Below, in pieces: positions 6,808-9,814 of a stretch of DNA of 64,000 bases. The position numbers and the translations under genes were made by a program. Position 1 is the stretch's first letter; every line of letters starts with the position of its first letter. The DNA comes from Pseudofrankia inefficax (GTDB lineage: Bacteria; Actinomycetota; Actinomycetes; Frankiales; Frankiaceae), in NCBI RefSeq assembly GCF_000166135.1, contig NC_014666.1:4712001-4776000 (forward strand), written 5' to 3'. Under the pieces are notes generated by a model. That model was not told where the DNA came from and did not search any database. It saw only the letters and a list, made by a program, of their open reading frames with translations.

Positions 6808-8247
6808 GTGGTGGATCTCGACGACGCCATAGATGCGCTGGCGATGCTCCGGATGGCGTCTCGCCAGGGCGCACAGCTGCCGTATCAACCGCTAGTGCTG
6901 CTGTGGGCGGCAGAGCGCGCCGCGACAGAGGACACTCGACTGACCCGGTGGTCACACGCCCGGGCCGACCTGGCCGCGATGCTCGCGACGAACAGCGACG
7001 AGGACCGAAGGCGGGCAGCGCCGGAGTATCCCGTCGTCGCGCTACGTGGCTCGCCTCTGTGGGAGATCGAAGCCAGCTCGCCACCGCCTCCTGCGCATAG
7101 TTCGCAGCCGCGCCGCTGGCTGGACCGCGAGGATCCCGCGTTTGGTCTCTCCGCACCTGCCTTCGAGCTCCTGCGCGACGCACAGTCGCGCGAACGGTTT
7201 GTCACGGCGCTCCACGAAGTCGTAGAGCAGTCCCGGCCTCCGACCGCAGATCTCGCGCAACGGAACGACGCGTCTGCGCCTGTCGTCGCGGACGCTGAGG
7301 GCCGTGCCTGGAGCCTGCTCACAATCGACGAGTCCGAGCGACAGTTTTCCGGCAACCTCGGTTACTCCGACGTGCTTGGCAGCACCTACGTCTGGGACAG
7401 CACTGTAGCCAATCACCGGGCCGTCCAAGCCGGGAGCTTGGCGGTTTTGCGCGATAACCGCATGGTACTCGGTACCGGTTGGATTGACGAGGTGGGCACG
7501 ACGACATCGGTCAAGATCCGCCGGCGCTGCCCCTCCTGCGGTGCTACCTCCTTCAAGACGCGGCGCACCGTCGCGCCCAGATACAAGTGTTCACCTTGCG
7601 GAACCGTATTCGATAATCCCAGTGAGGAGCAAATCGACGTCACGGTCTACGTAGCGGACTACGCACGGACATGGCGGCCGGCCGAGAGCCTGACAGTAGC
7701 GTCTCTTGAACCTGTCTACATGAACCAGAGCAAGCAGCAGTCAATCCGCCCGCTCAACTTCGCGAGGCTTAAACCGATCATCTCCATGTCCGCCGGTTTG
7801 GGCGCGCGCTGGTGGACAGACGCGACTCCGGCCCACGTGCCTGGTGGCCACGGCTTGGCCATCGGCAAGGTGCGCATCGGTCAGACAAAGTTTCGTGCGG
7901 CTCTGCGTCAGCGTTTCGGCGACGCGTGTGCAATCACAGGCGTTCAGCCGCCGGACGCTATCGAGGCCGCCCACCTCTATCGATTTAGCGACACGCCAGT
8001 CCACGATCTGAGCGGCGGGTTGTTGCTCCGACGGGACCTGCACGCCCTCTTCGATCACTTCCAGGTGACTATCGACGCTGAGACCTGGACGGTGCGCGTC
8101 GCACCGTCCCTGGCGGCGGACTTTCCCGATCTAGCCAAGCTCGATGGCGCGCCGCTGGCCATCCCTCCCCACCTGCGACCGCGAGGTGACTATCTCCGCG
8201 TTCACATGGCCTGGGCACTCGACCAGTGGGCAGCGCATCCAGACTGA
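6808..8247 (+). CDS. Candidate type IV restriction protein: sulfur-binding-like domain, zinc ribbon, HNH nuclease
   Basis: A 479-residue protein with three parts. Residues 1-140 resemble the sulfur-binding domain (SBD) of McrA-type enzymes that cut phosphorothioated DNA: PYQPLVLLWA at 25-34 and EYPVVALRGSPLWEI at 73-87. Y74-P75-x-x-A78 has the spacing of the sulfur-pocket residues as I recall them from ScoMcrA (Y164, P165, A168), and Y26-Q27 fall where H116-R117 would be. Residues about 180-300 look like a PUA/EVE-like fold (TYVWDSTVANHRAV) with an inserted zinc ribbon (C241, C244, C261, C264). Residues 360-425 form an HNH nuclease with EAAHLYRF (H389) and RRDLHALFD (H412); the central Asn is Gly (GGLLL). 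The start is GTG, with no clear ribosome site. Codon use is less GC-biased than in neighbours, suggesting transfer. The HNH call is firm; the SBD and PUA calls are inferred. Confidence 0.75.
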   Translation: MVDLDDAIDALAMLRMASRQGAQLPYQPLVLLWAAERAATEDTRLTRWSHARADLAAMLATNSDEDRRRAAPEYPVVALRGSPLWEIEASSPPPPAHSSQPRRWLDREDPAFGLSAPAFELLRDAQSRERFVTALHEVVEQSRPPTADLAQRNDASAPVVADAEGRAWSLLTIDESERQFSGNLGYSDVLGSTYVWDSTVANHRAVQAGSLAVLRDNRMVLGTGWIDEVGTTTSVKIRRRCPSCGATSFKTRRTVAPRYKCSPCGTVFDNPSEEQIDVTVYVADYARTWRPAESLTVASLEPVYMNQSKQQSIRPLNFARLKPIISMSAGLGARWWTDATPAHVPGGHGLAIGKVRIGQTKFRAALRQRFGDACAITGVQPPDAIEAAHLYRFSDTPVHDLSGGLLLRRDLHALFDHFQVTIDAETWTVRVAPSLAADFPDLAKLDGAPLAIPPHLRPRGDYLRVHMAWALDQWAAHPD

Positions 8248-8347: not shown

Positions 8348-8953
8348 CTAGGGTCCAAGAGGCCCCGATGGGGAACCAATGTCGGCGCGAGCCGCCTCGA
8401 TCATTTCTTGAAGAGATCGCCGCAGGTCATTCCAGACCTGCGAGGTGCGGATAAATGCGTCTGCCTCCTCGCTTACGGTTGCCTCACTCATGTGGCGCAG
8501 CAGGCCGGTCACCGCATCGAGAGAGTCGCTGCCGGCCTTTGCTGCCGCCGCGGCCTCGTCTGAGCCGACGACCTGAATCTCAATCACCTGCCGGGCGACC
8601 TCACGAGAGACGACAGCCAGGTCCTCCAGGAGCGCTCTTTGCTCCCGAGTTGGATCGTTCGTTCTCGTATAGCTGTCGGCAAGCAGACTATCCAATAGTC
8701 TACTGTACTGGTCCGCCGCCTTTTCCAGGCTTAGCACTATTGCGGAGTACAGTAGGCGGCGCTCCTGGCGCAGCCACTTATGGTGGTCCTGCCGGTACTG
8801 CCGCTCGGCACGCTGCTCCTCGACCACAGTTCTTCGGCGTTCCCTGTACTCCGCCAGTATCCCGGCAATAGAAACGCCGGACAGCGTTGCGGCTGACGAG
8901 ATTATCAAGGGTGCGATCGCCGTTCCCACAGGACAGAAGTCTGTCAGATTCAT
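8348..8953 (-). CDS. Membrane-anchored coiled-coil protein of unknown function
   Basis: 201 residues, not recognised. One N-terminal hydrophobic segment (about residues 12-34, APLIISSAATLSGVSIAGIL) is followed by a long charged helical stretch (YRERRRTVVEEQRAERQYRQ) that should form a coiled coil on the cytoplasmic side. The remainder is Ala/Glu/Ser-rich and helical. ATG 8953 is chosen because it directly precedes the membrane segment; a longer open frame upstream has shadow composition. It converges on the HNH gene with a 100-bp gap. AT-rich codons (for example around 8680-8760) match the atypical style of the HNH gene, so the two may have arrived together. Any defence role is speculation. 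Confidence 0.65.
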   Translation of the reverse strand: MNLTDFCPVGTAIAPLIISSAATLSGVSIAGILAEYRERRRTVVEEQRAERQYRQDHHKWLRQERRLLYSAIVLSLEKAADQYSRLLDSLLADSYTRTNDPTREQRALLEDLAVVSREVARQVIEIQVVGSDEAAAAAKAGSDSLDAVTGLLRHMSEATVSEEADAFIRTSQVWNDLRRSLQEMIEAARADIGSPSGPLGP

Positions 8954-9360
8954 CCACCGCCGTGACCGGATCGAGGCGATCGGGACGGCCCACTGGCCAG
9001 TACCCACAGCAGAGTCCGGACCGCGCCACGGCAGGCATCGGCGACGCCTCCTGGAGGTTGGCCGACGGCGCACGCACTGCTCGTCGACCGCGGTGGGCCT
9101 GCCCCAACTGTGACGGCGGCCCGCACTCCGACAGACGACAAAAGCTGCCACGGGCTGACAGGTGTGCATCCCTGCGAACCGCGCGTCCGGTCGACGGACG
9201 TCCGTCCGCAGCCCGCGATCGGAGGATCCCCGCATTTCTGAGGCGCCGAGATCAGACTGTCCTACGCTGTGCTGGTCCTCACCAAAGGCGCGGAGACCCC
9301 GGATGGCCACGTCCTGCGACGAGGAGGGAGTGGCGGCCCGTTCCAGTGGGGCCACGTCCG
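8954..9360. other. Intergenic stretch, no gene seen
   Basis: Open frames on both strands show no ribosome site and have Arg/Ser/Pro-rich composition. It probably contains decayed sequence, since a gene remnant follows directly. Confidence 0.4.
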
Positions 9361-9519
9361 GGAAGCGCTCCGTCGATCGCCGCCCTCGTCGTGTCAACGC
9401 TCATCGCAAATCGTCATGCAAACGCGGCCGACGGCGCCGATCGTATTCCGTTCATCCTGGAGGTCTTCGGCAAGTTCAGCTCCGGGAAGTCCATCGACGA
9501 CCTTCTCCTGATGTCGGCA
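9361..9519 (+). pseudogene. Remnant of a membrane protein (N-terminal membrane segment plus helical domain)
   Basis: The plus-strand frame reads a short membrane-like segment (APSIAALVVSTLIANRHANA) followed by DRIPFILEVFGKFSSGKSIDDLLL. This is the pattern of actinobacterial small membrane proteins with a cytoplasmic helical domain (DUF4760-like). There is no start codon in a sensible place. The frame runs straight into inverted repeat copy C after LLLMSA, so both ends are lost. This is inferred from residue pattern only. Confidence 0.4.
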
Positions 9520-9594
9520 AGATCGCTTTTCCGCCCTCGCATAGTTGTGTCCGCGGCGTGTTGTGACCACGCGAGGGCCGAAACGGCGATCAAG
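9517..9594. repeat. Dispersed inverted repeat, copy C
   Basis: Left arm GATCGCTTTTCCGCCCTCGC; right arm GCGAGGGCCGAAACGGCGATC; the centre holds GTGTCCGCGGCGTGTTGTGAC. The right arm is a near-consensus copy; the left has lost one or two bases. It abuts the membrane-protein remnant. Confidence 0.8.
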
Positions 9595-9814
9595 CCAGCG
9601 GGCGGACCTAGCCGGACACGGCAATAGATGGCGACGTCCAACATGCTCGTCAGCTACGCGTGTGGCCGGCAGCAGGATTGGCCGGCCGCGTCACGGCTTG
9701 GCCGACACCGAGACCGACACCGACCTCGATGCAAGCCATCGCTCGACGTTTGTGGACCTGCCGACGAAGCCTACGGAACAGAAGGTTGAGACAGCCTGGA
9801 CCCGGCCGGCAGCC
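9595..9814. other. Intergenic stretch, no gene seen
   Basis: It contains only short simple repeats (ACCGAGACCGACACCGACCT at about 9710) and no believable open frame. Confidence 0.4.

What the first reader, a model, noticed from the sequence alone, without database searches (positions are those of the whole stretch)
6808..8247. Possible phosphorothioate- or modification-sensing type IV restriction enzyme with altered pocket
The N-terminus matches the sulfur-binding domain layout: Y74-P75-x-x-A78, 48 residues after Y26-Q27, which equals the spacing I recall between H116-R117 and Y164-P165-A168 in ScoMcrA. The His-Arg pair is Tyr-Gln here, so specificity may differ. A PUA-like segment carrying a four-Cys zinc ribbon is placed between this and an HNH nuclease whose central Asn is Gly. 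That is a three-module reader-reader-cutter design. The gene has atypical codon use and no dnd genes nearby.
Basis: partly seen in the sequence, partly recalled or inferred. Interest (0 to 1): 0.65.

Follow-up and report, generated by a model that had tools for sequence, protein, structure and literature searches.

The report
Sulfur-DNA-sensing restriction enzyme, new domain combination
A Frankia-family bacterium carries a gene for a probable defence enzyme that should recognise and cut foreign DNA carrying sulfur in its backbone; its sulfur-binding pocket is the ordinary known one, but the pocket domain is joined to a second, zinc-bearing DNA-reading domain and a cutting domain in a combination found in only two of the genomes searched.

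Summary
The ORF at 6808-8247 (+, 479 aa) and the layout described are real. Residues 14-135 are a sulfur-binding domain (SBD): they match the solved SprMcrA SBD (7cc9) at E=4e-13. The pocket is not altered: Y26-Q27/Y74-P75/A78 is residue for residue the crystallographic SprMcrA pocket (Y31-Q32/Y78-P79/A82). What differs is the base-reading loop (HGD in SprMcrA, H-S-S here). Residues 166-330 are predicted to be a PUA-superfamily (EVE-like) domain with an inserted Cys4 zinc ribbon, and 355-479 an HNH nuclease homologous to VcaM4I. These two form a stand-alone module in about 50 other bacterial loci (mostly actinobacteria) and one phage; Asn-to-Gly is family-wide. Only this strain and Frankia sp. 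AgB1.9 have an SBD on it. Close SBDs in other Frankiaceae sit on a ScoMcrA-like SRA domain plus a different C-terminal domain, so an SBD was probably moved between chassis. All three domains are under purifying selection (dN/dS 0.16-0.32). The complete genome has no DndC and no candidate SspD, as expected for a PT-dependent type IV enzyme. New domain combination of a known kind; activity untested.

The parts
6808..8247 (+). complete CDS, 479 aa, GTG start: SBD - linker - Zn-ribbon EVE-like domain - HNH
   Evidence: 92% identical syntenic copy in Frankia sp. AgB1.9; dN/dS 0.28
6808..7233 (+). sulfur-binding domain, residues 1-142
   Evidence: phmmer to SprMcrA SBD 7cc9 E=3.7e-13 and ScoMcrA SBD 5zmo E=1e-3; NCBIfam NF045808 local match
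6883..6888 (+). pocket residues Y26-Q27 (= SprMcrA Y31-Q32, ScoMcrA H116-R117)
   Evidence: alignment; pocket definition in PMC7470945 and PMC6224610
7027..7041 (+). pocket residues Y74-P75...A78 (= SprMcrA Y78-P79...A82)
   Evidence: alignment; PMC7470945
7096..7104 (+). H97-S98-S99, position of the base-contact loop (SprMcrA H102-G103-D104); His kept, Asp not
   Evidence: alignments; PMC7470945
7234..7302 (+). interdomain linker, residues 143-165, fast-evolving; also the point where DNA similarity to other Frankiaceae SBD genes ends
   Evidence: dN/dS of residues 141-165 is 2.4 on few changes; blastn similarity ends near 7233; pLDDT < 50 at 143-163
7303..7797 (+). PUA-superfamily (EVE/ASCH/YTH-like) domain, residues 166-330
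   Evidence: AlphaFold2 block pLDDT mostly 89-96 from residue 191 on; VIA-align Z 8-10 to EVE proteins and DrmA
7528..7599 (+). Cys4 zinc ribbon C241/C244/C261/C264, inserted between two long strands of the PUA-like barrel
   Evidence: C241, C244, C261 invariant and C264 at least 90% in 48 sequences; strands 228-240 and 272-284
7870..8244 (+). HNH (beta-beta-alpha-Me) nuclease domain, residues 355-479
   Evidence: Pfam HNH_2 E=2.1e-11; family profile to VcaM4I HNH E=6.6e-13; TagI HNH Z 12.2
7972..7974 (+). H389, general-base His (= VcaM4I H224)
   Evidence: invariant in 48 sequences; alignment
8014..8016 (+). G403 at the 'N' position of HNH (= VcaM4I N241)
   Evidence: Gly in at least 90% of the family; N241 exchange mild in VcaM4I
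8041..8055 (+). H412...D416, metal ligands (= VcaM4I D250...D254)
   Evidence: invariant in 48 sequences; alignment

Best explanation
A single-protein type IV restriction enzyme dependent on phosphorothioate (PT). The N-terminal SBD captures the Rp sulfur of PT-DNA (a GpsNNC-type core) in an SprMcrA-type pocket. The EVE-like domain with its zinc ribbon adds a second DNA contact, probably a check for a modified base or a brace near the cut. The HNH domain, probably dimeric as in VcaM4I, cuts the DNA at a distance. The host makes no PT of its own by Dnd, so incoming PT-marked DNA is the target. Shown: SBD homology with identical pocket; predicted PUA fold; HNH homology with catalytic residues kept; purifying selection on all three domains; absence of DndC. 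Inferred: PT binding, cleavage, what the EVE-like domain reads, and the role in defence.
For: SBD match to SprMcrA crystal sequences E=3.7e-13 with all five pocket residues identical. HNH match to VcaM4I E=6.6e-13, with H389, H412 and D416 at the catalytic positions. Two-domain fold match of the model to VcaM4I, Foldseek E=6.8e-8. Middle domain matches EVE proteins, Z 8.2-9.2. No DndC in the genome; its only PAPS-reductase-family hits look like CysD (four) and CysH (one). In Frankiaceae, 12 of 35 genomes have an SBD match and 2 have DndC, with no overlap. dN/dS 0.16 / 0.32 / 0.25 for the three domains. Less than 3.6% of SBD-HNH enzymes lie beside dnd genes (PMC7461809).
Against: No activity has been shown. 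The base-contact loop and two phosphate-contact arginines (SprMcrA R29, R85) are not kept at the aligned positions, so PT affinity or core sequence could differ or be lost. AlphaFold gave low confidence for the SBD (only two aligned rows there). The zero SBD/DndC overlap is expected about 43% of the time by chance with these counts. The gene is not in a recognised defence island.
Confidence: 0.72

Rival explanations
1. The enzyme is mainly a modified-base (5mC/5hmC or similar) dependent EVE-HNH restriction enzyme; the SBD only adds non-specific DNA affinity or has lost PT recognition.
For: The EVE-like/HNH module occurs without an SBD wherever else it was found. Its fold matches VcaM4I, a 5mC/5hmC enzyme. 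ScoMcrA with SBD-SRA-HNH showed 5hmC-stimulated but inconclusive PT-dependent cutting in one study (PMC7461809).
Against: The SBD pocket is intact and the SBD is the most constrained part (dN/dS 0.16). Two Frankia species keep it. SBDs closely related to it sit on another chassis, as expected for a specificity module.
Confidence: 0.13
2. Two-key enzyme: efficient cutting needs both a PT linkage and a modified base (or a second site bound by the EVE-like domain).
For: Three-module layout with two separate predicted readers. EcoWI cuts better with two sites (PMC7461809).
Against: No sequence evidence shows AND logic rather than OR logic or simple anchoring; elsewhere the module occurs with one reader.
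Confidence: 0.1
3. A decaying chimera without function.
For: Low GC and atypical codons suggest acquisition; the fusion was seen in only two genomes.
Against: Open over 479 codons in both genomes, dN/dS 0.28 overall, catalytic, zinc and pocket residues kept.
Confidence: 0.05

Closest known systems
SprMcrA (SBD-HNH, Streptomyces pristinaespiralis) and the EcoWI/Bsp305I group of PT-dependent enzymes
   Same: SBD with identical five-residue pocket at the N-terminus (SprMcrA), HNH at the C-terminus, no dndC in the host
   Different: An additional Zn-ribbon EVE-like domain lies between SBD and HNH; base loop H-S-S instead of HGD; NCBIfam score 40.5 against cut-off 180
VcaM4I (EVE-HNH modification-dependent restriction enzyme)
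   Same: PUA-superfamily domain followed by HNH; best Foldseek match; HNH sequence homology
   Different: No SBD in VcaM4I; Cys4 ribbon inserted in the EVE-like domain here; His412 instead of Asp250 and Gly403 instead of Asn241
ScoMcrA (head-SBD-SRA-HNH)
   Same: SBD, then a PUA-superfamily domain, then HNH in one chain
   Different: EVE-like rather than SRA middle domain as far as tested; no head domain; pocket Tyr-Gln instead of His-Arg; the four cysteines lie in the middle domain, not in the HNH zinc finger
Stand-alone Zn-EVE-HNH proteins (e.g. WP_265385106 of Rhodococcus antarcticus, YP_009785144 of Salmonella phage SEN8), annotated only as HNH endonuclease
   Same: Residues 166-479 align over the whole module at about 27-45% identity
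   Different: N-terminus is bare, an HTH, or a ScoMcrA-head-like domain instead of an SBD
Frankiaceae SBD-SRA proteins with a PD-(D/E)XK-like C-terminus (L008, L010, L011, L013-L015)
   Same: SBD about 50-70% identical; DNA similarity of the SBD-coding part
   Different: ScoMcrA-like SRA (E=3.4e-10 over SBD+SRA) and a non-HNH C-terminal domain

Membership tests
Sulfur-binding domain (SBD) | Sequence homology to solved SBDs | tested here: met
   7cc9 E=3.7e-13; 5zmo E=1.1e-3
Sulfur-binding domain (SBD) | Sulfur pocket (SprMcrA Y31, Q32, Y78, P79, A82) | tested here: met
   Y26, Q27, Y74, P75, A78; all five identical
Sulfur-binding domain (SBD) | Base-contact loop of SprMcrA (H102-G103-D104) | tested here: not met
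   Only the His aligns (H97-S98-S99, one residue shorter). Base-contact residues are variable among SBDs (PMC6224610), so this bears on specificity, not on membership.
Sulfur-binding domain (SBD) | Binding of Rp phosphorothioate DNA | not testable with these tools
   needs EMSA or fluorescence polarisation
PT-dependent SBD-HNH restriction enzymes (NCBIfam NF045808) | Score over the curated cut-off (180 bits) | tested here: not met
   40.5 bits in two stretches, best 9-125; so it is not filed as a member of this model
PT-dependent SBD-HNH restriction enzymes (NCBIfam NF045808) | Host lacks Dnd PT modification | tested here: met
   no TIGR03183 match in the complete genome; the only PF01507 hits are four CysD-like and one CysH-like
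EVE-HNH restriction enzymes (VcaM4I type) | HNH domain homologous to VcaM4I with catalytic His and metal ligands | tested here: met
   E=6.6e-13; H389/H412/D416
EVE-HNH restriction enzymes (VcaM4I type) | PUA-superfamily domain N-terminal to HNH | tested here: met
   by predicted structure only: 6yex Z 7.8, EVE proteins Z 8.2-9.2, 11-14% identity
EVE-HNH restriction enzymes (VcaM4I type) | EVE rather than ASCH or YTH subclass | tested here: inconclusive
   EVE, ASCH and YTH rows lie within about 2 Z units
EVE-HNH restriction enzymes (VcaM4I type) | Base-flipping pocket for a modified base (VcaM4I P24, W82, Y130) | not tested
   no residue-level superposition was available
ScoMcrA-type SBD-SRA-HNH | SRA middle domain | tested here: inconclusive
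   structural matches of the middle domain were listed for other PUA-superfamily domains, which does not exclude SRA

The most novel reading that the evidence does not exclude
A dual-reader restriction enzyme in which an SBD with a new base-reading loop reads a PT core outside the known set while the zinc-ribbon EVE-like domain must also find a modified base, so that only doubly marked invader DNA is cut.
Probability: 0.1. Interest if true: 0.6.

Novelty: new variant of a known kind. Interest (0 to 1): 0.36.

Why it matters
It points to reader-module exchange: closely related Frankiaceae SBDs sit on two unrelated chassis, and one nuclease chassis carries an SBD, an HTH or a ScoMcrA-head-like domain. 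That offers natural examples for building PT-dependent cutters and for mapping PT sites. It also points to an apparently undescribed family of zinc-ribbon EVE-like HNH enzymes, found mostly in actinobacteria and in one Salmonella phage, as candidate modification-dependent nucleases.

Tried and rejected
Altered sulfur pocket: rejected, it equals SprMcrA's. Degenerate HNH: rejected, Gly is family-wide and the catalytic residues are kept. Defence-island association of the stand-alone module: PADLOC scan of 135 near and 140 far neighbour ORFs showed defence-type hits in both sets with no clear excess near the gene; inconclusive. Empty-site comparison: the flanking genes are not adjacent in other Frankia genomes, so no empty site could be read. 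SBD in viral contigs: none found. Relatives in phage records: only the module. Pfam has no match above its cut-off for the SBD or the middle domain. SRA was not listed among the structural matches of the middle domain. The NAR paper looked up under doi 10.1093/nar/gkz755 (from memory, a screen of PUA-superfamily fusion enzymes) was not held.

Full report
What is there. The ORF at 6808-8247 (+) runs 479 codons from a GTG start. A 92% identical copy with conserved gene order on both sides is present in Frankia sp. AgB1.9. Between the two, dN/dS is 0.28 overall, and 0.16, 0.32 and 0.25 for the three domains; only the 25-residue linker is unconstrained. The gene has GC 65.1% and GC3 0.74, against 70.5-75.3% and 0.83-0.97 for seven flanking genes, which suits a laterally acquired gene.

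The sulfur-binding domain. Residues 14-135 match the SBD of SprMcrA (7cc9, 7ccj, 7ccd) at E about 4e-13 and the ScoMcrA SBD at E 1e-3. NCBIfam model NF045808 (PT-DNA restriction) matches in two stretches but far below its cut-off (40.5 against 180 bits). The SprMcrA crystal structures give the pocket as Y31, Q32, Y78, P79 and A82 (PMC7470945); the aligned residues here are Y26, Q27, Y74, P75 and A78, all identical. SprMcrA binds GpsGCC (5.6 nM), GpsATC (38 nM) and GpsAAC (95 nM). The pocket is therefore a known natural type. The base-contact motif H102-G103-D104 is not kept: H97 aligns, then S-S with one residue missing. At the positions of the phosphate-contact residues R29 and R85 there is no arginine, while R73 aligns with R69 (read from the alignment). 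If specificity differs, these are the places.

The middle domain. An AlphaFold2 model built on 48 sequences has block-mean pLDDT mostly above 89 for residues 191-320, and the domain alone has mean pLDDT 88. The best Foldseek match of the whole model is VcaM4I, an EVE-HNH enzyme (E=6.8e-8). For the domain alone, VIA-align gives MJECL36 Z 9.2 (117 residues, 3.8 A), DrmA Z 8.3 (99 residues, 2.8 A), PH1033 Z 8.2, VcaM4I 7.8, THYN1 7.7, ASCH 7.7 and YTH about 7. This supports the PUA superfamily; EVE against ASCH or YTH is not settled, and identities are only 6-16%. The Cys4 ribbon (241/244/261/264) lies between strands 228-240 and 272-284 and is conserved in the family.

The nuclease. HNH_2 matches at E 2.1e-11. 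A profile of the family matches the VcaM4I HNH domain at E 6.6e-13: H389, H412 and D416 sit at VcaM4I H224, D250 and D254, and G403 at N241. The three catalytic positions are invariant in 48 sequences; Gly at 403 is in at least 90%. In VcaM4I, exchanges of N241 had only mild effects (PMC7897488). The missing Asn is thus a family trait and no sign of inactivity.

How the parts came together. The Zn-EVE-HNH module occurs without SBD in about 50 other loci of a scan of 84,980 genomes (mostly actinobacteria, a few others), on Rhodococcus and Paenarthrobacter plasmids and in Salmonella phage SEN8. Its N-terminus is often bare, or carries a helix-turn-helix or a domain matching the ScoMcrA head. An SBD on this module was found only in this strain and in AgB1.9 in that scan; among 394 genomes of the class, the other full-module hits lie in open frames of 341-383 aa, too short for an SBD. 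The scan relies on short patterns, so others may exist. Conversely, other Frankiaceae have SBDs about 50-70% identical to this one, fused to a ScoMcrA-like SRA domain (E 3.4e-10 over SBD plus SRA) and a C-terminus with a PD-(D/E)XK-like motif (my reading of the sequence; no library match). In a small SBD tree the query groups with one of these, L009 (local support 0.82), within that set, and DNA similarity starts 16 bases before the start codon and ends near base 7233, the end of the SBD. An SBD from this group was therefore probably joined to the Zn-EVE-HNH module; the direction is an inference from a small tree.

Genome context. The complete 8.8-Mb genome has no DndC match. Its five PAPS-reductase-family hits are four CysD-like and one CysH-like genes (CysD and CysH assigned by me from sequence), so no SspD candidate is seen. 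In the family, 12 of 35 genomes have an SBD match and 2 have DndC, without overlap; with these counts no overlap is expected about 43% of the time, so this is only compatible. The gene lies among metabolic and regulatory genes and not in a recognisable defence island; the neighbourhood test for the stand-alone module was inconclusive.

Verdict. A probable PT-dependent type IV restriction enzyme with an ordinary SprMcrA-type pocket and a new domain combination. PT binding, cleavage, the ligand of the EVE-like domain and the role in defence are inferred. No paper found in the library searched describes an SBD-EVE-HNH enzyme, but that library is incomplete.

Noticed in passing
window 9371-9812, compared with L057 10587-11147: AgB1.9 has an intact 186-aa ORF (probable membrane-anchored protein) downstream of the enzyme gene; the corresponding stretch in the window is broken and shortened.
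   Followed up: no
window 8348-9397 (-): Convergent ORF downstream of the enzyme gene, with a probable membrane segment and coiled region, conserved in AgB1.9 (L057 9554-10564); function not assigned.
   Followed up: no
L051, L054, L104, L094, L108 (N-termini): In Rhodococcus and mycobacterial relatives the Zn-EVE-HNH module carries an N-terminal domain; in P0003 (L051) it matches the ScoMcrA head region (mREase_IV positions 4-96, E 1.8e-17), and the others look alike by sequence. Function of that domain unknown.
   Followed up: partly
L008, L010, L011, L013, L014, L015: Frankiaceae SBD-SRA proteins whose C-terminus looks like a PD-(D/E)XK nuclease (motif ELIEAKG) instead of HNH; no library match for that part. 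In L014/L015 the pocket Tyr-Gln is replaced by Ser-Glu.
   Followed up: partly
L154 (G024:C49) and L155 (G026:C38): Two Frankiaceae genomes have DndC (over the curated cut-off) and no SBD match, a possible source of PT-marked DNA for SBD-bearing relatives.
   Followed up: partly
L055 2992-3951 (Salmonella phage SEN8): A stand-alone Zn-EVE-HNH relative (29% identity) lies between the portal gene and the cos site of a P2-like phage.
   Followed up: no
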